Source: Saccoglossus kowalevskii (lineage: Eukaryota > Hemichordata > Enteropneusta > Harrimaniidae). From it: a stretch of DNA of 64,000 nucleotides. The stretch is taken from positions 3,854 through 67,853 of the forward strand of contig NW_003119932.1 in assembly GCF_000003605.2 (NCBI RefSeq). The letters run 5' to 3'. The position numbers and the translations under genes were made by a program. Below are positions 375 to 37,670 of this stretch, piece by piece; position 1 is the first letter of the stretch; each line of letters opens with the position of its first letter. Under the pieces are notes generated by a model. The model was not told the origin of the DNA. It did not search any database and saw only the letters and a program-made list of their open reading frames with translations.

Positions 375-4312
<3,938 letters not shown>

Positions 4313-5228: not shown

Positions 5229-5285
5229 ATGATTGCAATAGCTGTTCTTGTTTTAGCAACATGTGTACGTACAATCGAGTCACGG
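5229..5285 (+). CDS. Locus A exon 1: signal peptide
   Basis: ATG in the context gccATGA, encoding MIAIAVLVLATC, a short hydrophobic signal. Two phase-0 donors are possible: TGT|gtacgt ending at 5264, which matches the equivalent exon of locus D, and CGG|gtgagt ending at 5285, the stronger consensus, adding VRTIESR. Confidence 0.7.
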
Positions 5286-8200
5286 GTGAGTGCTATTAAC
5301 AGTTCATTTAGTTTAATCATGTGCAAAGTTTGAAACATTCTATCACATAGGTCACCACCATTTGTCGTCCTTGTTTTAACCACGAGTAACTACGTCGATT
5401 AATGTAGGTTACATTATCGTGTATATTCTTGTTACAAACGTAATTTACTGACTGAGATAGTTTGAACATTCAGTTAGAACTGAGTCGCGCATTGCATGGA
5501 GAACCCCGTATCATGCAACCACAATCTCGGGCCAGAAATTAAATTGTCTCCAACTGTGTAAAATCAATTAAATATGTACGTTTTATTTGCATATAGGTAA
5601 TCACGAAGAAGGCGTTATCAGGTGAATATGCAATTTTTCTACCCCTCCCTCCCAATCTTCAATAGAAAATAATTCTACTGCTTTTTTTATGGTCAGTTAA
5701 CCCATGACTCTATAAAATGTCAATACAGTACCAACCTGATATGGATTTAATGCAAAGACCAATATACCATTGTCAACTTAATGATAATATACCCAAACAA
5801 TTCGAAAAAAACTAATTTTAGCACTGATATCACCATACGTTTACAACGTATGCGTTTTACTTAGCATAGCGCATACAATCAATCTCTCCTCTCACCAGAC
5901 AATAAGTGTCTGTATCTGTCAAATAAAATGAATAGTTATATTTCATTCTTCTCCTTCTAGTAACTCAAACAATATCCCTGGAAGATTTTGACATCATGAT
6001 TGTACCACACAAAAAATCATGGCCAGATGCACAGGCGTACTGCGTGATGCAAGGCGGAAAGTTGGCCCAGCCATCAACAAAAGAGCGTAACGACATCTAT
6101 GAGAATGTATTAAGAGGCGCTAATGTCAAAGGAGAATATTGGATAGGATTGAACGACAGGAAAGAGGACTACAAGTTACGATGGACAGATGGTACTCTGT
6201 TGTTGGGGTTTGTGGACGACTGGTATCATGGAACGTTATCCAATAACAACGACAGATTCAACTGTGGAGTTGTCAAGTGAGTACATGTTTTTCACTGTAA
6301 AACAATACGACTATTCAAGAATGACGTCACGCGCCATGGCTATTAATAGTAAATTCAATCTTCATGCTACATGTCAGCTTTAGTTTTATTATTTGATGAA
6401 AACTGAAATGTTGGCTGCCAAAACGATATTTCAATTTCAGAAAAAAATCATATTCCAGATGAAAATTTAATATCAAACACAATTATTTTAAAATGCTAAA
6501 AAAATGTATCCATCATAATGTCTCGTATTGTTTTCATACTACGTGCATGTGAGGGGGATCCCTGTCCTCATGAATTTTGACCTGACATTTGTGCTGTATA
6601 TGGAAGCCCTTTTGTCTGGGTTGTGTAGAACTAAACATGACTTTAATCATAATCTTGTGTGGATATAAAAACGCATATATTGAACTAAAATAATCGAATC
6701 TATCTGCATATCTGTGTGCAGGTCACTTGCCGGTCTTGGTGATTACAAGTGGGCGTTTTCTAGCTGTGAAAAACAAAAGAAGTTCCTATGCGAAATTACA
6801 GGTACGTTTAAACAATTCTTTTTGTAGTTGCTTATGTATCATAAAACTACTGGCTCGATGAAATATCTTTTATTTGCAATATTGTTGTATTCGTCGATCA
6901 ATTTTGTGCTTTTTATTTATTTTTTTCGCCGCAAAAAATAACTTTTCATCCACGCCATCACTGTTCGAGTAAGCATTCCATTCCATTCCTGGTAACTACA
7001 ATGACGAATTCAAGCTTATTTTGAACCAGTACAGCGATATTCAATTTAAGTAAAACCTCTCAAAATCCTTATCAGAAATCTAATCGCCTGAATGTAGAAT
7101 AAAATTCCTTCTATTCTACACAATTCGTGCTCTTGCTGCGACTTTATTTGGCTTTATTGTTCAATTGTAATGCACGATGGACTCTCGGCACGGTCATGTC
7201 CTCGTACATCGCAGGCACTCTTCCTGATGAAATAGTTGTGCAGCTGCGCATGTTCTGACAGTCTCGTAAAACTCTAGTCGAGGCTTATATTTACCCACTC
7301 TGAACTAGTGTTCTTTTCGTCGAGTTATACACCGGGATTTTTTCTGGATATAAAATATCGCAATGAGTCCTAACCTGTCATTTTTGTTAGGACGACTGTC
7401 AATTAACACGTCTCTCACAGTCTACCTATAGTACTGTAGTACTGCTCTTCATCGACTGATACCGACTTCGACAGTTTGTCGACAGATAATTGTAGGGTTT
7501 TCAACAGAAAGGTCTAGAATGCATATATGTATGATACCCAATGCTACTACTTGGTTGTAGTCCATCGACAACTTTTAGAACATTCATCAAACATTGTATA
7601 TTGTGTAGTAAATATCTGAACAAAATAACCAATGATGGGTTTGATGAAATATGCCGATATTCATCTTGTATTTTGTTCAAGTTTGCACTGACTGCAAAAT
7701 AACCGTGACTAATGATGGTATTTTATGCTTATTTGGTGATACTCTAGTCGTACACACATTGTATGGGTCGCATATCATGTGCTTTCAGAAATTGATAGAC
7801 TGTAAGAAACGATTTCGAAAAAGGGCGAAAAGAACATATTGGTAGAACATTTTGCCAAGTTACACTTGCGAGTAAAAAAAACCTAGTCAAAGTAACACAA
7901 ATGGTGAATGGAATAGTTGATGTATATGTTGGCGTAGTAAAACTGAATGTAGTGAATTAGGAATGCGACCCGAGTGACACAGACAAGATTGACATTCCCT
8001 TTGAATAACAAACGCATGTCGCTTCTGTGCAACATAGAAAACACTAGTGACGTGTATTAGTTTGATAGTGTGTTTAAAAGTTGATTGTGTTCAATACGAT
8101 TTTATAGCGGTATATACACGATACATGCCGTGCATGACATTATTAACACAACGTTTTCAAATTGATCATTGTCTATATTGCATTTATTTTTATCCTTCAA

Positions 8201-11200
8201 GTGCGTGTGCAAGGCGAGAATCAAATTTTAGACCTAGTAATTTCGGGAAAGCATTTTTATGGTTATCAATTCATGCGGTCGATTACTATCGGCTCACTCC
8301 CGACTCTTGTTCCTATTACATATCACGCATTCACGTGGCTGCTATACTCTACAAATCTGAAACTTCTGGTACACATTTACTTGTTACAGGACCAATTTTG
8401 TGCGGTACTCGCCCACTTGCACCAGATCACTTGGTCGGTAAATCAGACGCTGCTCTGGAAAGCTGGCCATGGCAAGTGAATATAGAAAAGGAGGGCAACC
8501 ATTCGTGTAGCGGAGCCATCGTCAATGAACACTGGATCCTGACATCGGCACAGTGCGTGTAAGTGATAGTTGCTACGGTTCAATAAATGCTGAATTGAGC
8601 GAATTAAATATGTATATATATAAAAGCCCAACCTATTTAATCTTACTTCTACCACTCATTTTCATCATTGTTTATTTATAAAAGTGACCCCTTGCCTGGT
8701 GCATGAATAATTTCTGAACCATGTTAGTATTTTACCCCCCACCCCCACCTCTCGGAAAAAGTAGAATTCGGATCAAATGCTGCTGAGGATCACACATTTC
8801 ACCTAGTGTGTTGTATTGTGTTAGCACCCTGTATTATATTTTGCGTGATGCAGCCATTTGATCTAAAGAGTATGTTTTATGTTAGTAATTTAACAAGCTC
8901 TTTTTTACTGACACAATTTGTTGTAACGATATCATATCAATACCTGTGCAGATGAATCGGCGTAATTTTGGAGACTCCCTTTTATCTGTGGTAATTCTGA
9001 TTATAGTTTGATTTCAAAAAACAAATTATTAGTTTTGTGTTTTTTTACTCGGAGAAATATTGAAATAATAGTTTACATTAATAGCTCGTCGCTACATAAT
9101 GGTCAGAAATGCGACTTGAAGTAGTTGTTGAAGTAGTTGTTTTCCTCTAAAAGTAAAATTTGAGCTACACAGTGGTTAACTTGACTGTCACATTGTTAAT
9201 TTACTTGTCAAATTTATTTACCCCTTTGTTGAACCTTGCAGATTTGATCCAGACGGCTACCAGCCTAGAGTAGATTCCTTTATCGTGAAGATGGGTATAT
9301 CTACTATCTCCGGGACGCCAGCTGCCCAGGAGTCTCCAGTGAGCTACATCGAGGTGCATCCTTTGAACGATCCTCCAAGCAGAGAATGGGACTTCGCATT
9401 GATGTATTTTGACTCGCCACTTACTTTTACTGAATACATTCGTCCTGTGTGTCTTCCGCCACCACCACCAGAAAGCGAGAGCTCTGATGAGTGTGCCATC
9501 ACTGGATGGGAACTTGTTTCCAATAACGGTAATTAAAACTACATTATTGGTTGCTGTAACAATTATCAGACCTCAAAATGAAGGTGGTACATCGCGATAA
9601 CTTAGGAAATATGTTTAATTTTGTTAAATTATAATTTAATAGCAAACCACCCAATGTCAACTGATGTTACACTACACACTTGATTCAATGTATATTTCCC
9701 AGGTTGATCTTGAATTGTTACTCGGTGAATTGCAAGAGTAATATGTGATTGAATATAGCTAGTTTCTTGTGACAATCTACATTTGTATGTTAGTAGTATT
9801 TGGTAGAATATGACAGGCTTAGTATTTGAAAATCAGTGCTACGCTAGTTAATAGTATACTACGCTCTTGTTTGTTCAAGGTACGAAATATTACAACCATC
9901 TTCAACAAGTTATCCTACACAAAACAGACAATTGCAGCAACACGGAATCATCAATGTGCATTGTCGAACACGATGATGGAAGTAATAAGACGGTATACGC
10001 TGTAAGTGTGTCAGTTTCAAATGTATAACGTCCAAGTCATGAATTAGGAAGATACAAGTAATCACGATGCTCGATTACTACGATTAGATGTCATAAACAA
10101 CTGACTGTGACTACTGATTGTTTCTTTGTAGATTGACTGTTCATCACTCGGCGCACACTTAAAAGCTTCCCCAGGAATGTTCCTTACTATATTTTGTAAT
10201 TGACCAGAGTCGATATCCATCCTGTATTCAATGTGCCAAAAATACATGACGTACAATAAAGAGCATAATAGTGTGGATATTATAAACAAAATATTCATAG
10301 AAATATATTTAAGTAAAATCAGAGGTACATTACTTGGGATTTGCAACGCACATAGTACTGTATTCACCATATCATCATGCCAAGATCCCATTCAAGTCTC
10401 ATCTCGTAGATAGCGAGACTGGTGCTACTACCTTCTGACATGACATAGGCGGTTTGTAATAAAACAATAAAACATGTATTACGACATTCATAGTGAAAAG
10501 AATGTAATACATCGAAAATGTACAGAAAATATAGTTATCGTAATCCGTCATATCGTGAGCAGCTATTTCGATCCACCTGGACATCCCAGTTACCTCGGGC
10601 ATGCGCATTCGCATTTCTCTGAGTTGGAACGCTTATGCGAGAGTGAGATTGTAACGGGATCTTGGTATCATGTCGCTGTAGTTGCAACCCCCAAGTAATG
10701 TACCTCTGGTAAAATACATTTTAAATAAAATACGAATAAATCAAAATGTTAGTATTTAAACTGCCCCATCCTGAATTGGTATTGTGCCATCAACGTTAGT
10801 TCAACAATTATATTTAAATACGTTCGTCATCAAAGCTTTTGTTGTCTGCCTTTCACTGTGAATTTGCCAAATATACAAACCTTTTGGAAAATGCATGATA
10901 TAATAAATAAAATATTCGAACAAAATAAAAGTTGAATTCTGTTTCTGTTAATTGAAAAACATGTTTAATATGTTTTGTTTTCTTGATTAGGGCGACAGTG
11001 GCAGTTCACTGGTATGTCTAACGGGAGTGTATCAATGGTATCTCACTGGATTGCTGGAATGGGAAGAAAGCTCGGCCAATCACTTAAACTATTCTCCAGT
11101 TGCTATGATAATCGATTGGGTAAACAACACAATACACGAAGGTAAGATGAATCATTATTTCGAGTTGTAGTTCGAACCCGTGTGGCAGGTTGTAATTTTC

Positions 11201-14200
11201 CATGGCAACGCAGGGTTTGTACAACATGGGATATCAATATAAATAGCTATAACTTCTAGGGATATAACCACGCTCATTCTGGACGCCACGATAATTCAAT
11301 CGCATTCAGAACATTTTTATTGTTACGGCCATACAACTCACATTTGCAATCTCCAGTTGATTACGTGCGGCATGGATTTAGTTGGTTGTAATGCTAAACG
11401 GCGTTCGGATAGCGTTGCCATGGATTCTTTCAATTAACTAGGTTGATTTTGATAAATAAATGTGATCGTCATAGGGTTTGACGCATGGTGTAAATTGCAA
11501 AAAGTCATCAATATTATTTCATTGTTACTAAATTTCGAAATTTTCACTGACTCAAAAATTCACTACAATTTGTCTTATGCGAATTTCAACAGATTTCGAG
11601 TAATTGCCTTCATAAATAAGTAATCGCCAAATTGAGGCAAAATGCGTTTGCTTTCAACAACGACGTTTAATCTGTTTGACAACATTTGGCCTCAGAGCAT
11701 CTAAAAATTCAAATTTGAATCCCGCTTTGATTCCACTCATCTCACCGGCGCATATACTCATCCGATCTCACAGAACGAATTGCTTGCGGCACAACACCTG
11801 CCAATGACCGTATAGTGGGGGGCAGCGACGCTACCCTGGGAAACTGGCCATGGGATGTGGTACTGTACGTCGAAGATTCCCATAACTGTAGCGGGATAAT
11901 CATTGATGAGCACTGGGTGATGTCTTCTGCCAAGTGCATGTAAGTATTAGTATCGTACGATTTCTAAAAGGTATGCCAGTTAAGCGATTGCAACATGTAT
12001 CTAGAGTTATGAGAAACAGACCTAGAAACTGGTGAAGTTCGCCAAAGACTTGGATTATTTAACATCTGTATTGCATTTCATTCAAAATCCTAATAAGAAT
12101 ACGCTAATAAGAATAAGCTAAACAAAATCCTGCTTTTTTTCTCCCAGGTACAATTATGAGTCGGACCCCCCAGTTCTCGCTGATGTTTCGCAGTTCGAGT
12201 TTTCTGCCCCTCTACAGCTACATGTATCCGGAGTCGATTCTATTCATTTGCATCCGGAATACATTTCGACCGATCTTGCTTTGTTACATACACCGTCGAC
12301 TTTACCCTTCAACGATTACGTTAGACCAGTGTGCATGGCGACGACTGAAAACAAAGATTTTTTCCCGGAAGGCAAGACGTGTTTTATAACTGGCTGGGGG
12401 AAACTGGGTGACAATCGTGAGTATTTTCGTCATTGAACCTGACTGTCTTGTCAGACTTACGCACTATAAACTATTTATGAGAATACGAGTAAGTTTACCA
12501 TGGAAACAATTTAACAATCTCAACTGTGTATAATTTCATTTTTCATTGGACACTTACACTGGCTTAACGCACGTGACGTCATCGATCGAAATGTATTATG
12601 TGATACGGAAATGTGCAGCCATTTAAGTTGAAGCTGATCCCTAATCCCTTGAAGCTTTGTCGGAGGAAATGTCTCATTTCCAATTTTTTTTCGCAATTAA
12701 AAAAAATCAATGTATCCTTGTAAATGTTTGCTGGGAGACTATCCTAAAATATGATTGTCTATTGTTTATATATTAACTCCAAACTCGAAGGAAACAGTTT
12801 TTCAATATGCTGCAATTTTGCCAAACCAATCACTAATCTCCAACACTAGTACTGTCATTACAATCATTCGGCCCACAATCTAAAAACCTACGTTACCAGC
12901 ACAATACTCAAGCATCCACACATTCTCCAACGACAACTACCTAACAACCAACCACTATGATTCACACCTCCAATACCACCCGCCATCAACAGCAGTAGCA
13001 TCAATACACCAGCAGCTTCCACAACTCGGCTGTTTGATGCATTTGCTGAAGTATGACGTAATCTAGTTATCTATCTGATTGAGTACACACTGATTACATG
13101 CCTAATTGTTTTATTCTATTTTAGAAGAATACGCGACGAATCTACAAGAAGCGGAAATGGTGATCATTAATAAAGCTATTTGTAGGTTTGTTTTTTCAAT
13201 GTTTAACCTCCTCATCCCGGACAACAGATTGTGTGTATCGTATCAAGGTAACGTCACCGGACCATGTTTGGTAAATATAACTAAGATTCATCTGTATTTT
13301 AGTTGAAATATTTTCGGCTCTCCAATGCTCTATTATACATCAAATAAAAGTATGTTGTCTATGCAGGCTATGATTTATTATTTGGGCACTATTAATCTAA
13401 GATAAATTGCGAATTGGTGACTGAGCAATATATTACAATGACTCATACTCGAATTAACACTCCATGACAGTCGTCTCACCAAGATACTAGTCCAATGCGA
13501 TGTATACACCGTATGTGCCACTTTTAGACATAGTTTTAAACAAGCTGATGTTGTATTTAAATGACCTTCAGTCGGAAATGTGCATCCTTAATTTCCCTCA
13601 TTTTGCATAGACAATTAGGGTTAATTAGGGTTATCGAGAAACTGTGGCATTCAACAATGGCAATACAAATCCGATTAAACTTGTAGGCACTTTTGATAAC
13701 AATTTACATTGTTTTACACATCGCTGATATAGGGAACATATACATATGAACTATGCTCTGTGGAACACACGGAATGTTTTAGGACCTGAAACATACATAG
13801 CTGTATGTGATTAACAAAATTAATGAGGCCTTCAAATAAATATCAATCCATAAAAGTTCGACTTGACATTAAATATGTTAGGCTATTTGAAAATTGTATA
13901 AAACTAGTGATCATGCAGATTAGTTGTTTATTTTCAAATCTTCTGTTGTTTATCATATTGGGTTTGCATTGGTTACTATCCTAAACAGAACAATATAAAT
14001 GAACCTATAATAAATTTATGCAAAAATGTCCAATTTTGATTAATCGCGATATTGTTTTTATTTTTGTGACAATATTTTGAATGACACAAAAACAGACAAA
14101 ATGTTCCCAGTTCTAAATTATTTTGCTTGATCTATTAGCTCATACAAAAGGCTTTGTTAAACGATATAAAAAGTACATTTATTGTAGTGAGTACTAATGA

Positions 14201-14766
14201 ATTCTTCGAACCTAGTCGTATCTATTTAATATATATTAATGAACGGATATAAATTAGTTTGTCATGTAATTTGTTTTTATCATCATACGAATAAAAAAAA
14301 CTGTTATGATGGAAGTTAACATTTCTGGACACTGGTAGCTCGTTGGTTTGCCAGAAAGATGATGGTCGGTGGTATTTGGCAGGTATTATTTCCTTCTTCA
14401 TTGGCAAGTGTGGAAGTTTAATTCCAGCTGTGTATACAAGTGTAACATCAGAATTATCATGGATTATGGACACGATTCGTAATGGTAAACATTTACATAA
14501 TTTAATTTCAGCCAATAATTCATGCGTGTTTGTACGATTCAAAATTGGCAGTTGTATTTGTATCGCAATGAAATCCCGAAACCCCGCCCAAAGTGATGAC
14601 AATTGTAGTAATATTTAAGGAATCGTTCTAAATCCTCGTACACCGCCAACTAAAATGTACTCAAACTGGAAGGTCACATGGTCATGCACAGACCAATCGC
14701 ATTTTTATTGCTTATCAGGCTTATTGAGTATTCGAACTCTACTTGCATTTTTTTTCAGATAAGTAG
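5229..14766 (+). CDS. Locus A: secreted C-type lectin with two serine-protease-homologue domains
   Basis: Thirteen exons: 5229-5285, 5597-5621, 5961-6276, 6722-6801, 8390-8558, 9242-9528, 9880-10001, 10991-11141, 11774-11939, 12148-12416, 13125-13270, 14316-14484, 14759-14766. They sum to 1965 bases, 654 residues plus stop, with matching phases at every junction and no internal stop. Order: signal peptide (1-12), C-type lectin domain (about 28-160), protease-like domain 1 (160-402), domain 2 (403-652). Domain 1 has Gln214, Asp266, Ser355 at the triad positions and a lost activation site (DH|LVGK). Domain 2 has Lys456, Asp500, Thr602 with DR|IVGG kept. Both lack the catalytic His, so neither should cleave peptides. 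The lectin domain has WIGL but no EPN/QPD or WND sugar motifs. Likely a secreted binding or regulatory protein, perhaps immune; that role is inference. An alternative donor at 5264 would remove seven residues after the signal. Confidence 0.85.
5597..5621 (+). CDS. Locus A exon 2: 25-base microexon
   Basis: Flanked by atatag and gtgaat, it encodes VITKKALS plus one base. Its length (1 mod 3) is exactly what is needed to join the phase-0 signal exon to the lectin exon, which starts with two bases of a split codon. Confidence 0.6.
5961..6276 (+). CDS. Locus A exon 3: C-type lectin domain, main part
   Basis: Between cttctag and gtgagt. Encodes ISLEDFDIMIV, SWPDAQAYC, GGKLAQPSTKERNDIYENVL, YWIGLNDRKEDYKLRWTDG and NNNDRFNCGVV. 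The C-type lectin core (first Cys, GGKLA, WIGL, W-D-G, third Cys) is plain. The usual Ca2+/sugar tripeptide region reads GTLSNNN rather than EPN or QPD. Confidence 0.9.
6722..6801 (+). CDS. Locus A exon 4: C-type lectin domain, C-terminal part
   Basis: 80 bases, phase 1 in and phase 1 out. Encodes SLAGLGDYKWAFSSCEKQKK then FLCEIT, the last beta strand and the final two conserved cysteines of the fold. KWAF stands where canonical sugar-binding lectins carry WND. Confidence 0.88.
8390..8558 (+). CDS. Locus A exon 5: protease-like domain 1, His-loop exon
   Basis: Encodes LCGTRPLAPDHLVGKSDAA, SWPWQVNI and EHWILTSAQCV. The R|IVGG activation site has become H|LVGK and His57 is Gln. The 169-base length equals that of the same exon in locus Z. 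An earlier in-frame stretch upstream (8047-8389) is intronic. Confidence 0.9.
9242..9528 (+). CDS. Locus A exon 6: protease-like domain 1, Asp102 exon
   Basis: 287 bases after a ccttgcag acceptor. Encodes FDPDGYQPRVDSFIVKMG, SREWDFALMYFDSPL (Asp102 kept), YIRPVCLPPP, and ECAITGWE. A poly-proline stretch follows RPVCL. Confidence 0.9.
9880..10001 (+). CDS. Locus A exon 7: protease-like domain 1, Cys168-Cys182 exon
   Basis: Starts after gttcaag. Encodes YYNHLQQVILHKTDNC and SSMCIVEHDDGSNKTVYA, ending in phase 0 at gtaag. Cys191 and the S1-pocket region typical of active trypsins are missing. Confidence 0.8.
10991..11141 (+). CDS. Locus A exon 8: protease-like domain 1, Ser195 exon
   Basis: Reads GDSGSSLVC (Ser195 present, the following Gly and Pro replaced by Ser), QWYLTGLLEWEES and IIDWVNNTIHE. 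Cys220 is lost together with Cys191. Phase-1 donor leads into the second domain. Confidence 0.88.
11774..11939 (+). CDS. Locus A exon 9: protease-like domain 2, His-loop exon
   Basis: Encodes RIACGTTPANDRIVGGSDAT, NWPWDVVLYV and EHWVMSSAKCM. The activation site R|IVGG is kept, but His57 is Lys. Confidence 0.9.
12148..12416 (+). CDS. Locus A exon 10: protease-like domain 2, Asp102 exon
   Basis: Acceptor tttctcccag. Encodes IHLHPEYISTDLALLHTP (Asp102 kept), NDYVRPVCMATTENKDFF and CFITGWGKLGDN. 269 bases, 18 shorter than the domain 1 equivalent. Confidence 0.9.
13125..13270 (+). CDS. Locus A exon 11: protease-like domain 2, Cys168-Cys191 exon
   Basis: Encodes NLQEAEMVIINKAICRF, LLIPDNRLCVSYQGN and VTGPCL, ending phase 0 at gtaaat. 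The cysteines at 168, 182 and 191 are all present, unlike domain 1. Confidence 0.85.
14316..14484 (+). CDS. Locus A exon 12: protease-like domain 2, Ser195 exon
   Basis: Encodes LDTGSSLVCQKDDGRWYLAG, KCGSLIPAVYTSVT and LSWIMDTIRN. GDSGG has become LDTGS, so Ser195 is Thr. The usual AG before GGAGAC is gone; the nearest AG (14314-14315) is in phase and adds three residues (LTF). The acceptor therefore looks shifted nine bases upstream. Confidence 0.75.
14759..14766 (+). CDS. Locus A exon 13: terminal exon
   Basis: After a strong tttttttcag acceptor the split codon completes as Asp, then AAG TAG. Loci B and D end in the same way with tiny terminal coding exons, which supports the assignment. 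Confidence 0.7.
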
Positions 14767-19378: not shown

Positions 19379-20411
19379 TTAAACATGTTTTAAACGCATA
19401 TGCATTAACTTCATCACCCCATGTGTCGAAATCATGGCAGTTTAAAAGGTGTTTTCGCTGCGTAAAACACATTTACAGAAAATAAAAAATACATTTGACG
19501 TTTTTACAGGAAATAAATACGAAGGTTACAGCAAATTCCTAATTATAATATATTTGATAATTTGTGTTTAAGAATCAACAATGGAAATTGCGTACGAATT
19601 CCGACATTTAATGTTTCAAATGCTTTATACGATTAAAAATAATAAAATCTTCATACAAATTACGGACGAAATATAAATATGCAACTTTCAACTTTGTATG
19701 ATTCTCTGTGGTTTCCTTATTAAACGGTTGTTCATTGTTGTTATACGCGTCACACATAGGCTCGATACCGTCTATATGATGCTGTGCCTTGGGTGTACTC
19801 GATGTTGCTTGGTTACAGTCTACGTCACACACAAATTTCAGACAGGCAAGCATGTTGTATAGTAAATCGCACGAGTAGCTGTTCAATGTGAATTCATTTT
19901 TCGGTTACCTCTAGAAAGCCGTTGAAAGAACATACTGGTACAAACACTTCGTTGACATACTATTCTCAGTACTAGAAATCTAGAAATCTCTGCCTTTGTG
20001 TTTTGTTACTGTGTGTTTTGTTATTGGATGTTGAAATACACGAAGTTTTCTTGGCAAATGGTGATGCCGTGTTTATTTTTTATAACGCGCGTTCTTTCAA
20101 AAGCTACAGAAGCAATAATTGGAGGTTCTCCGCAGCTTTCCGTAAAGTTCAAAGTTAACGTGTGATACCATTTCATTAATTTCTAAAATATCCTGTAGAA
20201 TATTTCTCTAGAATTTCATCTACGCTTCATTTTCATTGTTCATAGTCCCATAATCGCCTCTTACAAAAAAGTCTTGCACTTAAAAAGTGTGTCTTTCGTG
20301 AAACAGCTGTTAAAAAATGTTAATGCAGATACTTTCTTTTTCACTCTTGTTGACAAGATAGTCAGTCGTATAATTTCCTTACTAAACAACGTTACAAAAC
20401 AGTTTAATCTG

Positions 20412-20537
20412 AATGACAGGGAGAAAGATTGCACGCTGCGATGGACTGACAATACAAAAGCTAAATGGGTAAAGTGGAAAATTCTCTCCAAAAAACTAAT
20501 CAAATAACGACAACAAAAAAGATTGTGTGTTATCAAT
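20412..20537 (+). pseudogene. Locus B lectin exon 1 remnant
   Basis: NDREKDCTLRWTDNTKAKW matches the NDRKEDYKLRWTDG block of locus A. After a frameshift SNNDNKKDCVLS matches its SNNNDRFNCGV end. Donor AT|gtaag is in the family phase. The N-terminal half (about 20270-20411) is barely recognisable. Confidence 0.65.
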
Positions 20538-21796
20538 GTAAGTGATATAAATTGGTAATATTGTGATAGGCCTGCGTAATTCATACAAGTCGAATATATA
20601 ATATATAATTACCCTATTTAACAAATTCATCATTATTTCAAATCATACAGACATACATACCTTATACCCAATCGATTGTAAGGTACAGATAACTGATTCG
20701 GAAATAGAACACCTCTATTTTGCCGGAAGCTGGTAGCCTGTCACGAGCTTCTTACTGAATTCCCTTCTCGCTAGCGTTGTACTGGAGATCTCGCCCTCGA
20801 TTTGTATTGAGTTGTTGTAGCAGACTATATCCTTTTGTTCTAAAAGGCGTTCAAGAAGTGGATTAACGTCCTTTTCAGGGAAAGCATCTCCAGTGTGATT
20901 ATGTCGTCTTGCTACCCCCCCCCCCTTCTGGCTTGTATGTGCACGAGATGGGCACTCCATTCTATTTTCGAGTTGTCCGTAACTTGCGTTATGAATTGAG
21001 GTGATAAATCAATCTGTCATTTCTACTATATGTATTCAAGTCCGCCCACCGCCTGAGATATGTGATGCATTTCGGTGTCCATTCTATATGTGACCAAGGG
21101 TGGTCTTGTCCATCGTGCTTTGTAGTACACCTTAATAGGTCATACTTAGAGGGTCACATATGAGAACAATTTTCCACATTTCTCGTTCTCGTAGCACTGC
21201 TCACCATTGATTGTGTGATGGCCAGTAATAAAGACGCGAGTATATATTTATTGACTGGCCGTGTAGCCGTGCTATTAGTACTCACAATAATTTTCTGACT
21301 GTCTGGGGCAATTTTAGTTTTCGACATTGTGAAATACTTTCGTTTTTATGCAAACAAATACAATTCCTACACGAGTCGTTGAACACACTACATAGTCATA
21401 GTTTGTAATTTCATTCAGCTTCTTTCATTCATAATTCAAGACAAATAAAAGGCAAAATATAGAGAATATAAAAAAATGCTTCTTGTATTATCTTTGTGTA
21501 ATCGGTAATTACGAAAACTATTTATTAACGCATAGGGAATACATTTCGTTATGAATTATTTTTAATAAAACCTTTCTGAATTATCTTGTCAAAATCAGTT
21601 TTTTTCAGGGTATTTTCTTCCCAAAAAAACGAAAGAATTTCACGATGTCGAAAACGGAAAGTTTTTATCATTTTGTTTGATGGTTCGCAATAGTGTGAAC
21701 AAAGTAAATTTCAAGTTGAATGTGGCCTGCGAATTAGAATCTACTCTACTCGAGTTTTGTCTCATGGGCCTAACATTTTCTTCCCTAAAACTTTAG

Positions 21797-21842
21797 GTCG
21801 ATCAGAGCAGGAAAAGACACTACTTTCTGTGCGAACGTATAG
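21797..21842 (+). pseudogene. Locus B lectin exon 2 remnant
   Basis: DQSRKRHYFLCERIG matches the last strand of the lectin domain (CEKQKKFLCEITG in A). It is 46 bases against 80 in A, out of phase, and lacks the FKW..C part. Confidence 0.6.
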
Positions 21843-21966
21843 GTAAGATGACGGATAATAAGTATTATATGGCAAATTATTTCGTAGTGTCCGTGACATC
21901 GACAATTCTCATATTGTGAACGTTTTATTAAACCCATAATTAATTGTATGAAATTGTATTTTGCAG

Positions 21967-22130
21967 CATGTGGCACTCGTCCACTAGCAGCCAATCATAC
22001 TGAAGAATCAGTTCTTCCGGGTGTGTGGCCCTGGCAAGTGTCAGTACAATCGGAGGACCGCGATTGTAGCGGCGTTGTAGTCAACGGACACTGGATCCTC
22101 ACTTCCGCTTACTGCATCACACTCGCTCAC
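21967..22130 (+). pseudogene. Locus B domain 1 His-loop exon
   Basis: Encodes ACGTRPLAANHTEE, VWPWQVSVQ and GHWILTSAYCI. His57 is Tyr and the IVGG activation site is gone. The position of the usual donor (TGCAT|gt) reads catcac, so the splice donor is destroyed. Confidence 0.75.
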
Positions 22131-22594
22131 AAAGTTAAACTGCGCGTGTGTCGCAATTTACAGGAACAGTACAAACGTCAGACATTCACTTGAATGATAC
22201 AAATGTTCATTCGTATCATGAATTGACGAAATTTATCAAAATGACTGTCGACAGCCCGAGAATCCCGAGACCCCTTCCTCTCACGACACAAAATCCCTAC
22301 TTTCTGGAGGTGCGTAATCCAGTCCAGGTAATTGTACGATTCGGGGAGTGCGTTTTACAGTTACAAAGCTCGCTCTTGTGGGTATCGCGACTAACTAAAC
22401 GTACGCGCGTCTTGAAAGGTGTTGATCATTATTCAACAGGGTTGGACACGGTATATATATACGTACTATGCGCATTACGGTCCCTAATTACCTCCATACT
22501 TGTTGAAATGAACCGGGCATTATTCCACTGGATGGGAATCTATAATGAACATTAATTTCTTTTAATTAACTCCAAACCTGTTATCCTATCCTAG

Positions 22595-22897
22595 GTTCGA
22601 CAAAACTACGTTGAAGTACCCGTTTATGTTAGATGTTAGAATAGGCATGTCATCACTAGCTGCAAACGTATCTGAATACGAATATTTCTCCCAAGTCGGT
22701 CACATTGCGCCTCACCCACTGTACAATTCTAGGCCAATCCAATTTGATGTGGCAATGATTTTCGTTGACTCTTCAATCGTGTTCAATGACTACGTTAGGC
22801 CTATATGCCTTCCTACACTGCACTGCAAGACGATTTCTTTGACCCGACCGGAAGAGAGTGTGTTACAACTGGATGGAAAACCACCCTGACGGACGGC
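22595..22897 (+). pseudogene. Locus B domain 1 Asp102 exon
   Basis: Encodes FDKTTLKYPFMLDVRIG, PIQFDVAMIFVDSS (Asp102 kept) and FNDYVRPICLPT. A frameshift follows, after which DDFFDPTGRECVTTGW matches the family. No recognisable third exon follows. Confidence 0.75.
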
Positions 22898-23365
22898 AGT
22901 ACTTAAGTACTACTAGTATGTGACGTCACGGGTCATGCCTTCTCTGATAGTAACAAATTGAGATTATGTCTTTAAACTCAAACTGGAAGTGCACAAGTTG
23001 GGCTGAAAAATATACTAATTTTCTTCCCACGCTTAGTAGTGTGGATATCGCAGTACTGTTGGCCGAGTGAGGTTTAGCCTGAGGTCTGATATGGCACAGT
23101 TGGTTTCAATACATCTGAAAAGATGGTGTAAACCCTCGCGTCTTGATACTTATTGTAATTGTGGTGAGAAATTCCAAGCCTTAACAATTGACCAAACCAA
23201 ACATTATCCACTTGTCTGCATTTTAAAGTGTGTAATTTACTAAACTGCAGACTCGTGAACTAAACATCTGTTTTTCATAAGCGCGTGAAAAAAGTGAGTG
23301 TTATTAATCAGCAATAGACAATAATATTAATATTTATATGAAATTAGATAAAAGACCAAGTGTGT

Positions 23366-23450
23366 ACCGTATTTATCCGGGTATAAGCCCAGGGTCCTGA
23401 ACATGGAAAATTGCCCAAAACAAGGGGTGGGCGTTTGCCAGAAGATCCCC
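23366..23450 (+). repeat. CCGGGTATAAGCCC-type repeat fragment
   Basis: Carries TATTTATCCGGGTATAAGCC and AACAAGGGGTGGGCGTTTGC. Related motifs (CTTATCCGGGTAAGAGCCC, AACAAGGGGTGAACGC) occur at 63748-63850 and 63984-64000, so this is an interspersed repeat family. Class not determined. Confidence 0.45.
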
Positions 23451-24351
23451 CGGCAAAAAAACAGGAAAATTCGCGAAAATTGACAACACGCAGATTGAAC
23501 TGCGGCAGGGAATAGAACGGCAAATGAAAACATGCAACGGAAATAAATGAACAATATGCAACACTAGAAGTAAAACAAAAATAATGTAATGCTTATAATG
23601 TGACAAATAAACCAGAAATAATAAAAATCGACAGTGAGGAATCATTTGAATTAGGATTTTCCCGCAGACAAACACGCCCAATACGCGTGAACTCAAAATG
23701 AATTAAAATGTCAGGGGTTAAACTGCGTGAAATGATTTCCGGTCTCGACAAATTACGCATCAACCGTCATACAAGATCAATAATAATTTCCAAATTTACA
23801 CAGTAAAAATTATAAAAATTCATAGCTGTTTGAAAAAAACTTCTCAGATATTTATTTGTACGTTCATTGCCATCTTCGTCAAACTCAAAACCCTCAAATG
23901 TTCAAGTCGACGTCACTGTAGCCGTCGAACAAAATCCCTACAACTTATTCCTGAAGTTCGTCGATATTGTCCCACACAATTTGGACTTAGCACTTTTAAT
24001 CCACGGATTTCGCAGTCTGTCAGCTTGGCATTTTTCATTCATGTCTAATCATAATAAAGAGACAAGAAAAATGGGGTCGCTCTGCTGCGATGGCACACGA
24101 TGCTTTTGTTTATAGTCTAGCAATCATCTTTGACCTTTATGCATCTGCTTTACTGATTGGCTAAGAATGGCATCACTACTAGTATTTCATCATAAAGGTC
24201 AAATCGTGACATTGCTTTCTTATCAGACTCGACGCTTATTAATCACGGTGAAAGTTATCATTCAGCAAGTTCCGTCGGTAGGAATGTCTCACTATATGGA
24301 TATCGCGGGGGACTAGTATGGAAAGCCATGACTGTCTTATCCTACTCATTT

Positions 24352-25046
24352 ACATTACATGATAGGCATTCACCATTACATGATAGGCATTCACCATTAC
24401 ATGATAGGCATTCGCCACAACGTGATAGGCATTTATCACAACGTGATAGGCATTTACCACAACGTGATAGGCATTCGCCACAACGTGATAGGCATTTACC
24501 ACAACGTGATAGGCATTTACCACAAGGTGATAGGCATTCACCACGTGATAGGCATTCACCAGTACATGATAGGCATTCGCCACAACGTGTTAGGCATTCG
24601 CCACAACGCGAAAGGGATTTACCACAACGTGATAGACATTTACCACAACGTGATAGGCATTCGCCACAACGTGATAAGCATTTGCCACAACATGATAGGC
24701 ATTTACCACAACGTGATAGGCATTCACCATTACATGATAGTCATTCACCACAACGTGATAGGCATTCGCCACACCGTGAAAGGCATTTACCACAACGTGA
24801 TAAGCATTTACCACAACGTGATAGGCATTTACCACAACGTGATAGGCATTTACCACAACGTGATAGGCATTTACCACAACGTGATAGGCATTTACCACAA
24901 CGTGATAGGCATTCGCCACAACGTGATAAGCATTTGCCACAACATGATAGGCATTTACCACAACGTGATAGGCATTCACCATTACATGATAGTCATTCAC
25001 CACAACGTGATAGGCATTTGCCACAACGTGATAGGCATTTACCACA
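24352..25046 (+). repeat. 21-bp minisatellite, about 33 copies
   Basis: Unit CACAACGTGATAGGCATT plus three variable bases, repeated about 33 times with sporadic substitutions and at least one shortened copy (near 24540). Because 21 is a multiple of three, long frames stay open on both strands: RHLPQRD and GIYHNVI heptads on plus, NAYHVVV on minus. These are by-products of the repeat rather than evidence of a protein. Confidence 0.9.
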
Positions 25047-25463
25047 ACCGATTATCTGTGCTGAGGTCTGTGATTTGGCAAGTTGTTAATGTATATAAAG
25101 CATCACACACATTTGGTAACGCGCTTCTGTGATGTAATAAATGGGTACAAGGAAAGCCTTCAATGTTAATTTGACTATAGTCGTCAACACAAACAAATGT
25201 TGTCAGCATGCGTATCTTGAATGAAATATACGGGTAGGGGTTTACTCTGAGCTGTATGCATTGTTTTTGATGTTTGTCTTTCTCACTCCGACGCGCACTT
25301 AATACATCCGTATCTCGAAGACAATTGCCAACTTGTACTATCCCTATTTACCTACTGTAAGGCGCGGCTGGAGTACTTGCTGTTAGATCTCCCAGTTTAA
25401 AAATAGATTCTTGCAAAAAAACCTTGCTGTACATTAAACACAATTGTCCGTACTCATTGATAG

Positions 25464-25615
25464 AGTGAGTATGGTGCACCGATGGTATGTCAAATGGATG
25501 ACGCAAGATGGCACCTTGCGGGAATCCGTTCATGGTGGCTCTCCTGTGATGAATCCTGCTCTATTCGTTAAAGTTACCTCGACAAATCAATGGATACATG
25601 AAACAATGAGTTCAG
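25464..25615 (+). pseudogene. Locus B domain 1 Ser195 exon
   Basis: Opens SEYGAPMVCQMDDARWHLAG, so GDSGGP has become SEYGAP and Ser195 is Tyr. After a frameshift NPALFVKVTSTNQWIHETM completes the C-terminal helix. Phase-1 donor TTCAG|gtgaaa. Confidence 0.7.
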
Positions 25616-25746
25616 GTGAAATTATTACAATTTCATGTATTTTACAGATTTATGTTCATAAATATTGTCCTGTTATTCCTATGCCAAATATTCTACTAAT
25701 AATCGCCAAACAACGAGGAGTTATTTTATTTGTGTTGTTTTACCCT

Positions 25747-25770
25747 CGACGACGACGACGACGACGACGA
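25747..25770 (+). repeat. (CGA)n microsatellite
   Basis: Eight perfect CGA/GAC triplets in a row. Confidence 0.9.
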
Positions 25771-26119
25771 CATACCTGGGTTGTGTGAGGCGAGCACGAT
25801 ATACAATATTTATAGACTAGCTCATTTTTGCACATTGTATCTATCATTTCTTGATGTACGTCCTCAAAACTCGTAATACTTACCCCAAATACAGATAGCG
25901 AAGTTTTCAATCTCTACACGATAATGTGCATTCGCAGTTAATGGTATAAATTATTCTTGTGCACAATATATTGCAATTTCTGCGTATACACTGCACCTTC
26001 CAAAAAAATAATTTGATATTATTAAGTGTGCTCATTGCTAGAATGTGTGAGCAAATTGGAAAGGTACATTGTAATAAACCAGCGCCACAAAGCAAAAAAT
26101 ACATTCGTTTTATTGACAG

Positions 26120-26293
26120 AACCCACAATATGTAGTACGCCCATACGCCCATTCCCGGTGATCGAATCATTGGAGGAACCGATGCATCGGCTGGTAGTTG
26201 GCCTTGGCAAGTACACGTCGTTGTTGGCGAATCACATACGTGTGGCGGTGTCATAATCGATACTCACTGGATTTTGACTTCGGCTCAATGTGC
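26120..26293 (+). pseudogene. Locus B domain 2 His-loop exon
   Basis: EPTICSTPIRPFP in one frame, then after a one-base frameshift GDRIIGGTDASAGSWPWQV and THWILTSAQCA. His57 is Gln; the R|IIGG activation site is present. The 174-base length is one short of a frame-keeping exon. Confidence 0.75.
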
Positions 26294-27302
26294 GTAAGTA
26301 GTACTAGTGTTTCATCTATTCCCCTGAAATGAAACGAGTAGTACACTATCGGGCATCCGCGGCACGTGTTCCACCGCAATGTCGAAGAAAATGGTCCGAC
26401 GTTAATATTTAGTTTTCATTTAGAAGTTATTTTTGGCGACTAATTATATCTGAAAAAATAACCACGAAAAACGTTACATTAGCAATATGAGCAACCTTTG
26501 TATTCAATTTTACATTCACTTTAACTGTTGTACGAAACATGTATTCGATAATGTGCGATTGGCATCAAATAAACACGCATTTTTAATCGTAAATACAGCT
26601 TCGTAGAAGGAGACAGGGGCGAAATGACGCCATGCATTGAAGAAGTTTGTCTTCTCATTTACAGCTCGTTTTATACCCGATATTTAGGGCATTTCGCAGC
26701 ATATAAAAGTTGTTTTTATCGCCAGATTTCATTCATAGATCCAAAATTTCATGCATGGAGTGACAAAAAACATCTGTTTCCCTTCAAAGTAATGAACTAA
26801 TACGCATTCATCTTTTAGTAAGTACCCATAATTCACTGTGCATGCGAACCGAGTCGCTTTAGTGGTTCATTATTTCACCAATTCAATTTGCAATTTCCAA
26901 CTCAAACTTAATGCTAAAACCATCTTGAATTTTCAAGGTGAATGTTCCGGCGAAGCACTCCACTATCACCTTGAAGTATTTCATTGGGACTATGTGTATG
27001 TGACAATGCCCTCACAGTTTAGAATCAGTTTACCAACAGCCAATCATATTGCTTCTTTCTACAACGCGCTTGTAAAGCTCTCAAAATCTTCAAGGCGGGC
27101 AAAGTCACGAGACGCGCACCACTCTACCATGTATTTCTATGGGCTCTGTGCGAGCCGGTGAAAATAGCTAAAATCGAGGAAACAGCACAAACATAAATTT
27201 GAAGAAATCCTAAACAACCAAATTTAAATATGTTGCATATGTAGGGATAATCTTGTTACACTGTTCAGGGGTGTCAACAACCGTCCCAAATACCGTTTTC
27301 TG

Positions 27303-27483
27303 NNNNNNNNNNNNNNNNNNNNNNNNNNNNNNNNNNNNNNNNNNNNNNNNNNNNNNNNNNNNNNNNNNNNNNNNNNNNNNNNNNNNNNNNNNNNNNNNNN
27401 NNNNNNNNNNNNNNNNNNNNNNNNNNNNNNNNNNNNNNNNNNNNNNNNNNNNNNNNNNNNNNNNNNNNNNNNNNNNNNNNNNN
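27303..27483. other. Assembly gap
   Basis: 181 N characters in a locus B intron. Any reading frame spanning it is meaningless. Confidence 1.
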
Positions 27484-27489
27484 GCACGG

Positions 27490-28353
27490 TGTTGTAGAGG
27501 GAGGAATGTCTAAACGGAGCAACACCGTGCAGGCGGACGATGTGCTAAAACAGACATTCCAACTTTCATTGAAAAAGTCAACTGTTGTGACTTTTCACAA
27601 AATAAAGCAGTACTGTTTAAAGAAAAATATATTGAGCAAAACATATAGCCATTGGCAAATTATGGGCAATGCGACATTTGTATGTGGTATCCTGAGTTAC
27701 CTCCTCGCATTATTCCTTGCAGGCACAATTACAGTGATGTTAGTACTGTCATGAATTTGTTTTTGCGTATCTGTTAACCGACTTAATTAGTTGATTATTA
27801 GCTGAAATGCTGTGTTATGTCTGTCATCGTTTAGGTCTATTTGAAGTTTTGGACGGAACTTGGCTCAGTGATTTGGAACTAATTACGAGATAATCGTCGC
27901 CATTCTGACAGTTTATATTCATAGTTATTAATGTAGTGAACGATTAATCAAAAGATATGACGTATTCAGTACTTAGTGTGATTGGCTTTATGATTGAAGG
28001 TTACGCCCTAGAGTCTTTTACTGTTTTGTAATTGGTTAGAGTTTTGAAAATGAATAAAGAGAGTTTGAGTTGGTCTTGGCGAATACTCCACGACAGACGC
28101 AGTCCGAGAGAGTCCAGGGGCGAGCCTTGAGGCAGTCCAGTCTTGGGCTAGTCTTGGGTCAGCCTTGCGAGAGTCTTGGGGACTTTTCCCCAGGGCGCCG
28201 TGTCTTATAGAGTGCTCGAAAGATCGACTAAGACGAGAGCTGAAACGTATTTCGTTGTGTGTGCCTTATTTGACTGTAAAGTTAAAGTGACTTTCCCGAT
28301 CCCGTACCTCAAGGGGACGCGATAGAGAGACGAGACGAGATTCCCCCCTGACA
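27490..28353 (+). mobile_element. Possible old solo LTR (Gypsy-like), fossil
   Basis: Begins TGTTGTAGAGGGAGGAATG directly after the gap, carries AATAAA at 28053-28058 followed by a G/T-rich stretch, and lies in a locus B intron just before an exon. No gag, pol or primer site is seen. The right end is uncertain (a TGACA at about 28350 is one option) and no target duplication can be checked because of the gap. Promoter-like composition and layout are the only support. Confidence 0.3.
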
Positions 28354-28396
28354 AGTGTGGAGAACCCCGATGAGAAGAGAGTTTTCCCCCTGATAG

Positions 28397-28701
28397 TACG
28401 AGTGTGGCTAATCCGGACCTCATTACCCTCAGAATGGGTATTATGTCATTGACTGTATCATCGCCTCACGAGTATTCCACTACCGTCGATTCTGTTTACG
28501 TTCACGACGATTACGACCCTGTGACTTTTGATTGGGATTTTGCCTTGCTGTTCGTTGCTGTGCCAATACAGACCATCCTCTATGTGAGACCAGTGTGCCT
28601 GGCTACCACAGAATACGATATTTTTTTCCAACCCGATGAGTACTGTATCATAACTGGATGGGATAGGGTTGTCAGCAATCCCAATCCACTTACTCATCAA
28701 G
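28397..28701 (+). pseudogene. Locus B domain 2 Asp102 exon
   Basis: Open throughout, with family phases (305 bases). Encodes SVANPDLITLRMGIMSL, TFDWDFALLFVAVP (Asp102 kept), LYVRPVCLATTEYDIFF and CIITGWDRVV. It is the best-preserved exon of locus B. Confidence 0.8.
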
Positions 28702-30042
28702 GTAAGGCCGTACTTTCTACAAGAGATTTACTAGATAGTTTACTGATTCACTGACGCTCATCAGCTTTAACATACTAGTACTGCTCAAAAATAGGTAGTC
28801 AACCGGGCGACGACGCTACATACCTTTTTGTACCGGCAACAGTAATTTCAAACACTAAATACAGTACGGCGATCGTATCGTCTGACGCGTACTAGTAGCT
28901 CATTACAATTTAATGAAAGGATTATAGCTCAAAATGTCAACAATACACCTTTTTGCGATTTGCGAACGTTTACGCCTCGGATTGCTGAAAAATCTGGCGG
29001 CAATCGTTCGTGTTTTCTGACGTCAACCTAAGAGAACATATCGTGGGACTTTTACACAAGTGTACATCCCGACATAGGTGAACATGCAGTTTTAGCGACC
29101 CGAAGAGCTCATTATCAACAGAGGCTTATTAAACAGAATAAAACTTAAAACGGAAAGTGTGACACTCAGTCGTACATGGCAATCTCGCAGGGTACCCTCA
29201 CAGAGCTGAATGCTAGTATTTGTACGAATATGCTAGTACGTGTACGAATCTATGAGCCACAAAAGCTCATTCAGTTTTATGGACGCGATATTTTATCTCA
29301 ATTATTAGTATAATTTCAGGAGTTTGTGTTTTACAAAAACACGCACATTACGTAACAGACTCGCACACTACATCGCACAGCGACACAATTTCCGATCCAC
29401 TGTCCCCATAGACAAACCGCAGATTAGGAATTCAAAAAGATAGTCAGATAGTGATGACATGTGCGAGAAAATCATCTCGTACATATTGATGTGTGTAACG
29501 TGACGAGTTATATTTGGTGTAAGTCCCAAGCAAAGGTTTCCTGGTGGAGGTAGACGTTGTAACATGTCTCTCTAATGCACGAATTAATCTGGCTGGTGGT
29601 TGTAATACATATTGGGTAAAACGTTAAGGCATGCGATTGTCGTCAATCGCAGTGATTAATGCATTAGCATGTGGCAATTGCATAAATTGAGTCGGACATT
29701 TTCGAATCAAATGTTTTCTTGGAGACTAACTGATGATTGGCGTTTGTTTTAACAGTTAATATTTAATGCATTTATTGTTAAATAGTCATCATAAACAAAA
29801 TCTAGAATTATCTGTCGAATAAGAGGCTACATGGATAACTTAATGGAATGTTTGAATATTTTAGATTGACTGCATCTCGACACACCGGTGTATGAGTCAT
29901 CGTAGTAAATTGTTGATTTGCGAACAGCATATGATTGATAACGCCCGTATCCAAGCGTTCATGTTCTTTGTCGTTTCAATGTCTAAACATAAAAGGCGTA
30001 ACCCACTCGTGTAAACTCATCTTGTAACGTTCAATATTACAG

Positions 30043-30182
30043 AAGAACACCCGAACATATTGCAGCAAGCAAACGTGGAGCTCATGGATACTCAGTAATG
30101 TATTGACGAATACAGCCAAGATAGTATTAATGTAACTGACTCTATGCTGTGTATTAACCAAGATGTGGAAGGACCGTGTTTC
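30043..30182 (+). pseudogene. Locus B domain 2 Cys168-Cys191 exon
   Basis: EEHPNILQQANVELMDTQ, a TAA stop, then CIDEYSQDSINVTDSMLCIN and GPCF, ending phase 0 at gttagt. Cysteines align with exon 11 of locus A. 140 bases keep the frame, so only the stop breaks it. Confidence 0.75.
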
Positions 30183-30915
30183 GTTAGTCACCTCAAGTTC
30201 ATTTGTGACACACATCGTAATATTTACGGGCGAGGTATTTATCACAAATGTCGCATCATTATTTACTTGGAAACAAGTTTTGTTTTCGGTTCTACCCAGA
30301 AGGAGAAATGTTGAAAATAACAGAGCGATGTTTTTCGTAACAGTTTCCATAGAACCTACCTTGAAGTAGTATTTCCAAATTTCCTTACAAGTACCCATCT
30401 TTTATCAACTACATACGATTTTGTCATCTAACGTAACAACATACTTCTAGATATTTTACCTTGTTTTGTGCAAAAATAGTTTGGTAGCCATATACATGTA
30501 TTTATATCAATGAAATGGAATTCGGTACAGTACAATTTGTCGTAGTACATCAGTTGAATCGTATACCATTTTAATGTTCACGGCCTAATCAAGCCTACTC
30601 AAGTATTTAACACTTCTTACGTCATTATGCGAGAATGATAATCATGTAAATTACCTGGATGCTCATTTGTCGATAAACGCGCCTCGTATTTAGTGTGAAC
30701 ATTTCAAATCAAACTGAGCAATTGTTTTAATTTAATTTACTTTAATTATGAAATTCTGACCAACTGAAGGACGGAAACTACGTGTTTAACCACACAAATT
30801 TCATCTACATGATATCTTTTATTGAATACATATAAAACGACGACTAATGTAGTCATTACAACGAGTGGTCTACGTTTTAATCAAATGTACATAATGTGAT
30901 TATTTCCATATGCAG

Positions 30916-31078
30916 GGAGATGGGGGTGGTCCGTTGGTATGTAGAAAGGCTGACATACGATGGTATTTGGCAGGTGTGACGTCTTGGGTGCCGGGGGAAT
31001 GCGGTAATCCTGAATTCGCTTCAGTCTTTGCCCGTGTTACTGCTGCCCAGGAGTAGATTAAAGACACCATCTCACAAC
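30916..31078 (+). pseudogene. Locus B domain 2 Ser195 exon
   Basis: Reads GDGGGPLVCRKADIRWYLAG, ECGNPEFASVFARVTAAQE and then a TAG where paralogues have Trp. Ser195 is Gly. 163 bases, the same length as in locus D. Confidence 0.8.
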
Positions 31079-37362: not shown

Positions 37363-37670
37363 GTGAGTTTTTTAATGGAATATAATTCTACATATCTTCG
37401 AATCAGGTTTTGCATCTGTATAAATAGAATATTTACTTTTCAAGTCTGCTTTGTGATATCCGCCTTATTGTGAATTAACAACAAACTAACCAGAAGTTAT
37501 TCTTTAAAATCAGCTCTTCAGTAAAATATATTAATGTAAACAACTTGAATATAATCTGGCATTATCAATGAAAATGTCTCGATTGTTTGTCATACACTAA
37601 CTAAATAGAAAGAATCTTACTTGTTACCATTGTTATCGGTCGTGACTTGACTTGTATCTCATTCTTGTAG

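What the first reader, a model, noticed from the sequence alone, without database searches (positions are those of the whole stretch)
5229..14766. Complete secreted C-type lectin fused to two catalytically dead protease domains
Thirteen exons assemble to exactly 1965 bases with every phase matching and no internal stop, while both sister copies (B and D) are broken. Both protease-like domains lost the catalytic His (Gln, Lys), and the second also lost Ser (Thr). The lectin domain lacks EPN/QPD and WND. Selection has kept the frame of a protein with no visible enzyme or canonical sugar site, which points to a scaffold, decoy or recognition role. Serine-protease homologues with regulatory roles are known (clip-SPHs of arthropods); I do not know a described lectin-SPH-SPH architecture.
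Basis: partly seen in the sequence, partly recalled or inferred. Interest (0 to 1): 0.85.

Follow-up and report, generated by a model that had tools for sequence, protein, structure and literature searches.

The report
Lectin joined to two dead proteases
An invertebrate genome carries a small family of genes that join a lectin-like domain to two protease domains which have lost their cutting residues, so the proteins probably act by binding rather than cutting, although the copy reported here has one damaged splice site and may not make the whole protein.

Summary
Thirteen exons give 1965 nt and 654 aa, with one Lectin_C and two Trypsin domains. His57 is Gln and Lys, and the second Ser195 is Thr. 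B and D are broken. One correction matters: the exon-12 acceptor (14316) scores at the 29.8th percentile of all window AGs, the other eleven at 91.5 or above. The AG that stands right before codon 193 in 17 of 20 protease copies is gone. The end of the second protease domain is therefore not secured.

A is not unique. The same genome holds CLECT-SP-SP relatives on three more contigs. One, E on C176, is open in the ten exons found and dead at both sites. Of 14 lectin-linked protease domains, 13 lack His57, yet 5 of 6 second domains keep a cleavable Arg|Ile/Val site and 6 of 6 keep Asp194. Codon models show purifying selection on A's two dead protease domains. Broken copies show it too, so this does not prove A alive today.

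Best reading: secreted lectin-pseudoprotease proteins, perhaps switched by cleavage, working as non-enzymatic cofactors. A is a member or just starting to decay.

The parts
5229..5285 (+). A exon 1, signal-peptide-like N-terminus (MIAIAVLVLATCVRTIESR)
   Evidence: hydrophobic start by inspection, no signal-peptide program run
5597..5621 (+). A exon 2, 25 nt
   Evidence: acceptor 98.3rd percentile
5961..6276 (+). A exon 3, main part of the C-type lectin domain
6722..6801 (+). A exon 4, end of the C-type lectin domain (WAFSSC...FLCE in place of WND)
8390..8558 (+). A exon 5, first protease-like domain, His57 replaced by Gln; activation site reads H|LVGK
9242..9528 (+). A exon 6, first protease-like domain, Asp102 kept
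9880..10001 (+). A exon 7, first protease-like domain
10991..11141 (+). A exon 8, first protease-like domain, Ser195 kept (GDSGSS); Cys191 (end of exon 7) and Cys220 both absent
11774..11939 (+). A exon 9, second protease-like domain, His57 replaced by Lys; R|IVGG activation site kept
12148..12416 (+). A exon 10, second protease-like domain, Asp102 kept
13125..13270 (+). A exon 11, second protease-like domain
14316..14484 (+).
14759..14766 (+). A exon 13, 8 nt with the stop codon
   Evidence: acceptor 99.6th percentile; so short an exon is uncertain
382..3412 (-). Neighbour U: broken lectin piece and a protease domain with His, Asp and Ser present
20406..31071 (+). Neighbour B: CLECT-SP-SP relic with frameshifts and a stop; His57 is Tyr and Gln
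37055..40664 (+). Neighbour D: CLECT-SP relic with stops; His57 is Asp, Ser195 kept

Best explanation
Locus A belongs to a small, locally duplicated family of secreted proteins built from one non-canonical C-type lectin domain and two trypsin-fold domains that have lost catalysis. Shown by sequence: the architecture, the dead triads, the existence of a second open copy (E), and long-term purifying selection on the dead domains. Inferred: the proteins work by binding. The lectin-like domain would bind a partner or surface without the usual Ca2+/sugar residues. The second trypsin-fold domain would be cut at Arg|Ile-Val-Gly-Gly by an active protease and change shape through the new N-terminus and Asp194, as in an activated zymogen, but would then act as a non-enzymatic cofactor, competitor or docking surface in an extracellular protease cascade. 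For A itself two states remain open: a full protein made with a cryptic exon-12 acceptor, or a gene whose last protease exon has just failed.
For: Architecture in A and E and in relics B, F, G, H. His57 absent in 13 of 14 lectin-linked domains against 2 of the 11 other protease genes whose His exon was fetched (Fisher p 2.4e-4, not phylogenetically independent). Cleavable R followed by I or V in 5 of 6 second domains (A2, B2, E2, F2, H2; not G2), and R or K followed by V in 2 of 5 scorable first domains other than U (E1, G1; H1 not covered). Asp194 kept in 6 of 6 second domains. A-branch omega 0.236 for the first domain (2dlnL against omega = 1: 12.5) and 0.035 for the second (20.3; branch length at the limit of the search, so only 'well below 1' can be said), against null-simulation maxima of 3.43 in 32 and 7.57 in 45 runs. 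A2 and E2 are sisters (97.2/98), both dead, and share GSSLVCQK.
Against: The exon-12 acceptor of A is lost. Five of the seven other CLECT-SP copies (B, D, F, G, H) carry stops or frameshifts, and U's lectin piece is broken too, so the family is decaying in this genome. Broken copies also have low omega, so omega says nothing about the present. Synonymous sites are saturated, which makes point values of omega loose. The lectin branch test is not significant for A. No expression data. U, with an intact triad, falls inside the first-domain clade, so His57 was lost more than once or the tree is wrong there.
Confidence: 0.5

Rival explanations
1. A is a pseudogene in its first stage of decay. The family worked until recently, the neighbours went first, and A has now lost the acceptor of its last protease exon, so no normal second domain is made.
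For: Acceptor at the 29.8th percentile; AG right before codon 193 in 17 of 20 protease copies but not in A2; A1 is the longest branch of its clade (0.885); A1 has lost both Cys191 and Cys220; neighbours B and D broken, U's lectin piece broken.
Against: No stop or frameshift in 654 codons, while 0.05 neutral substitutions per site already give a stop in 98.4% of 500 runs; in-frame alternative acceptors at 14355 and 14409; the other 11 acceptors are well formed.
Confidence: 0.35
2. The proteins are still enzymes of another kind or with weak activity: the first domain of A keeps Asp102 and Ser195 and might use another residue in place of His57.
For: Asp102 and Ser195 present in A1 and D.
Against: Cys191, Cys220 and the cleavable activation site are lost in A1; E has lost His and Ser in both domains; residue 57 takes six different identities in the 13 domains, as expected of an unconstrained site.
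Confidence: 0.05
3. The lectin domain and the two protease domains belong to two or three separate genes that lie next to each other and were joined by the reader.
For: In A the lectin and first protease domain are separated by an intron of 1588 nt and the two protease domains by one of 632 nt (coordinates); no transcript is available; the introns were not searched for further starts or signal exons.
Against: The same order with phase-1 domain junctions occurs in A and E, and the same order in relics B, F, G, H, in all on four contigs; the joined frames of A and E hold no stop between the domains.
Confidence: 0.06

Closest known systems
Mosquito CLSP1-3 (CTLD-SP group, Aedes aegypti; depletion of CLSP2 increases melanization)
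   Same: Fusion of a C-type lectin domain with a trypsin-fold domain; CLSP2 is cleaved on infection into its two parts (passages of PMC6070988; PMC4461313).
   Different: Order is protease first and lectin last; one protease domain, called elastase-like; QPD or EPN is kept in the lectin. Here lectin first, two protease domains, dead triads, no EPN/QPD.
Polyserases (human polyserase-2 and -3)
   Same: Tandem trypsin-fold domains in one chain; [quoted passage not shown]
   Different: No lectin domain (recalled); polyserase-2 keeps an active first domain; here both are dead.
Serine-protease homologues such as clip-SPHs (for example SPCLIP1 of Anopheles)
   Same: Non-catalytic trypsin-fold proteins with regulatory roles; SPCLIP1 regulates complement recruitment (title and start of abstract of PMC3764210 in the listing).
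   Different: They carry a clip domain; none was found here.
Hepatocyte growth factor / MSP (recalled, no call)
   Same: Pseudo-protease with a kept activation-cleavage switch; HGF has Gln at 57 and Tyr at 195 by recall.
   Different: Kringle/PAN domains and receptor ligand role; no lectin domain; one protease-like domain.
Horseshoe-crab factor C (recalled; named as a composite immune protease that is cleaved, in a passage of PMC4461313)
   Same: C-type lectin and trypsin domains in one secreted immune protein (recalled).
   Different: Has further domains and an active protease (recalled).

Membership tests
Serine-protease homologues (SPH) | Trypsin (S1) fold by sequence profile | tested here: met
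   Two Trypsin stretches in A and in E
Serine-protease homologues (SPH) | Loss of at least one triad residue | tested here: met
   A1 H57Q; A2 H57K and S195T; E1 H57L and S195G; E2 H57R, D102N and S195V
Serine-protease homologues (SPH) | No protease activity | not testable with these tools
   Needs protein
clip-SPH | Clip domain | tested here: not met
   Pfam lists no clip domain at E up to 0.001 in A or E
C-type lectin domain proteins | CTLD by profile | tested here: met
   PF00059 E 2.6e-16 in A, 1.5e-15 in E
Canonical sugar-binding C-type lectins | EPN or QPD and WND motifs | tested here: not met
   GTLSNNN and WAFSSC in A, GKISNNN and WKFTQC in E, by inspection; motif rule recalled
Mosquito CLSP (CTLD-SP) | N-terminal protease, C-terminal CTLD | tested here: not met
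   Order reversed and two protease domains; order of CLSP from passages of PMC6070988
Polyserases | More than one trypsin-fold domain in one chain | tested here: met
   on the gene models; that one transcript spans both is not shown
Polyserases | Closer to polyserase domains than to other trypsins | not tested
   No polyserase sequence was compared; the tree holds only this genome's domains
Pseudogene | Stops or frameshifts in the reading frame | tested here: not met
   None in A's 654 codons
Pseudogene | Damaged splice site | tested here: met
   Exon-12 acceptor, 1 of 12
Pseudogene | Neutral evolution (omega near 1) | tested here: inconclusive
   Rejected for A1 and A2 branches, not for the lectin branch; low omega also in broken copies

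The most novel reading that the evidence does not exclude
A family of lectin-linked double pseudo-proteases in which the cleavage switch of a zymogen (Arg|Ile-Val-Gly-Gly and Asp194 in the second domain) has been kept while the catalytic residues were lost, perhaps several times over. These would be cleavage-activated, non-enzymatic recognition proteins: a lectin that reports a protease signal by changing shape.
Probability: 0.25. Interest if true: 0.75.

Novelty: new variant of a known kind. Interest (0 to 1): 0.5.

Why it matters
Lectin-protease fusions and dead proteases are each known in animal immunity. This family joins them in another order and number, in what is probably a non-vertebrate deuterostome, and with both protease domains dead. 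If the second domain still switches shape on cleavage, it gives a clean system for asking what a trypsin fold does once catalysis is gone. It also warns that one open copy among broken sisters needs its splice sites checked before it is called complete.

Tried and rejected
Rejected: that A is a lone oddity (relatives on C176, C2174 and C4527). Rejected: that U, beside A, is also dead at its triad (His, Asp and Ser are present), although its lectin piece is broken. Rejected: using dN/dS to show that A is alive today (broken copies score as low). Led nowhere: lectin branch test (117 columns; A 0.445 with 2dlnL 0.10, unstable fit for E with omega 215, while G and F reject omega = 1). Literature searches and passages of three further papers on immune repertoires (PMC11312191, PMC11797021, PMC6321704) showed me no CTLD-SPH-SPH protein; they cover only an open-access library, and the amphioxus immune-repertoire paper is not held. 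Taxon: the mitochondrial contig (17,037 bp) has the order COX2-ATP6-COX3-ND3-ND4-ND5-CYTB with ND6 and COX1 reversed, which looks deuterostome-like by recall, and its COX1 reads best, against residues I recall as conserved, with ATA = Ile and AAA = Lys; hemichordate is my guess, not a result. Structure prediction was not tried, because a spliced protein is not contained letter for letter in the window.
Full report
What is there. The window lies in a 572 Mb genome in 4830 contigs, by its genes that of an animal. The 13 exons sum to 1965 nt, read 654 codons and a stop, and every intron is GT-AG. Pfam gives Lectin_C at residues 45-157 and two Trypsin stretches. The triad reads Gln/Asp/Ser in the first protease domain and Lys/Asp/Thr in the second. 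The lectin domain has GTLSNNN and WAFSSC where canonical sugar binders have EPN/QPD and WND (motif rule recalled). Simulated neutral change of 0.05 substitutions per site leaves no stop in this frame in 1.6% of 500 runs, without counting indels, so the open frame is not luck.

The weak joint. I scored all 2903 AG dinucleotides of the window with a simple acceptor matrix whose weights I set by hand. Eleven of A's twelve acceptors lie between the 91.5th and 99.9th percentiles. The exon-12 acceptor at 14316 lies at the 29.8th. In 17 of 20 protease copies examined, the last large exon has AG directly before codon 193 (15 with a Gly codon there; B1 and H1 with Ser). F1 has AG before a start two codons shorter. 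Only A's second domain and one isolated exon (L018, 7023) have none there. So A is open everywhere, but its last protease exon may be spliced badly or not at all.

Not alone. Searching the whole genome with protein A and reading the loci shows relatives. E and F lie on C176, G on C2174 and H on C4527, all lectin followed by two protease domains. In the window, B has the same plan, D has a lectin and one protease domain, and U on the minus strand has a broken lectin piece and one protease domain with His, Asp and Ser present. B, D, F, G and H carry stops or frameshifts, and U's lectin piece is broken. E is open in the ten exons found, with fitting phases, nine GT donors and one GC donor. It has a candidate signal exon upstream (not proved) and the same Pfam domains.

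Catalysis. His57 is missing in 13 of the 14 lectin-linked protease domains (U keeps it); the replacements are Gln (6), Tyr (2), Leu (2), Lys, Arg and Asp. Among the 11 other protease genes whose His exon was fetched, 9 keep it. Fisher p is 2.4e-4, but the copies are related and so not independent. Of the 13 dead domains, Asp102 stays in 11; Ser195 stays in 2 (A1, D), is replaced in 10 and cannot be placed in 1 (F1). E's second domain has lost all three residues. In contrast, a cleavable Arg followed by Ile or Val at the zymogen site is kept in 5 of 6 second domains (A2, B2, E2, F2, H2), and Asp194 in 6 of 6. Among first domains other than U the site is kept in 2 of 5 that could be scored (E1, G1; not A1, B1, F1; H1 not covered). 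This points to a kept cleavage switch in the second domain. It is an inference from few sequences.

History and selection. In a tree of the protease exons, first domains (with U) form one group (95.2/87) and second domains (with D) a weaker one (80.3/56); A2 and E2 are sisters (97.2/98). If these groups are right, the double domain predates these copies. U sits inside the first-domain group, so His57 was lost more than once or that node is wrong. Pairwise A-E omega is well below 1 in all three parts (2dlnL 37, 66, 92 against omega = 1), but synonymous sites are saturated: dS is 2.2 for the lectin and beyond measure for the protease domains. A branch codon model that I wrote gives omega 0.236 on A's branch for the first domain and 0.035 for the second, the latter with a branch length at the limit of the search; omega = 1 is rejected with 2dlnL 12.5 and 20.3, while 32 and 45 null simulations reached at most 3.43 and 7.57. 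The same test on 117 lectin columns is not significant for A (2dlnL 0.10) and was unstable. Broken copies also show low omega (B2 0.10, G2 0.11, F2 0.15, H1 0.19, F1 0.24, B1 0.34; H2 0.43 not significant). So the dead domains were constrained for most of their history, and the breaks are recent. The test cannot tell whether A works now.

How it may work. The simplest reading is a secreted, non-enzymatic binding protein. The lectin-like domain would provide recognition. The protease folds would provide docking, and the second could change shape when an active protease cuts before Ile16, as hepatocyte growth factor and clip-domain homologues are thought to do (recalled). Close works in print are mosquito CLSP proteins, with the domains in the opposite order and one protease domain (passages of PMC6070988, and PMC4461313), and polyserases, where inactive tandem domains are known (passages of PMC1435904). 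Seven literature searches showed me no lectin-SPH-SPH protein; they cover open-access papers only and I saw listings and passages, not whole texts.

Verdict. The most useful single test is RNA across exon 11 to 12 of A and across E.

Noticed in passing
window 382-3412 (-): Neighbour U: a protease domain with His, Asp and Ser and R|IVGG next to a frameshifted lectin piece; it falls inside the dead first-domain clade.
   Followed up: partly
window 24360-25048: Array of 33 copies of a 21-nt unit between exons of relic B, with two overlapping frames open over 250 codons; only Pfam matches below the cut-offs.
   Followed up: partly
window 15588-15689: A fragment about 1.1 kb downstream of A resembles the end of A's exon 12 (31 nt at 97% identity): a local partial duplication.
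   Followed up: no
window 52189-52503 (+): Open frame with a weak match to CARD (E 0.0041, below Pfam's cut-off).
   Followed up: no
window 41494-41655, 51559-51724, 52679-52840; 18283-18474 and 45179-45363: Dispersed repeats of about 160-190 nt at 77-88% identity, perhaps short mobile elements.
   Followed up: no
L010 and L011 (contig C4830, 17,037 bp): Mitochondrial genome with COX1 on the opposite strand to most of the genes tested and a COX1 that fits ATA = Ile with AAA = Lys (judged against recalled conserved residues).
   Followed up: partly
L024 (C1728) and L025 (C4262): Two more trypsin-fold genes without His57 (TSVLC, TSARC) and without GDSGGP, no lectin domain found in the stretch fetched.
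   Followed up: no
G000:C4110: Lectin_C exons recur at a spacing of about 8 kb along this contig, five on the minus and four on the plus strand, with near-identical scores: a tandem array.
   Followed up: no
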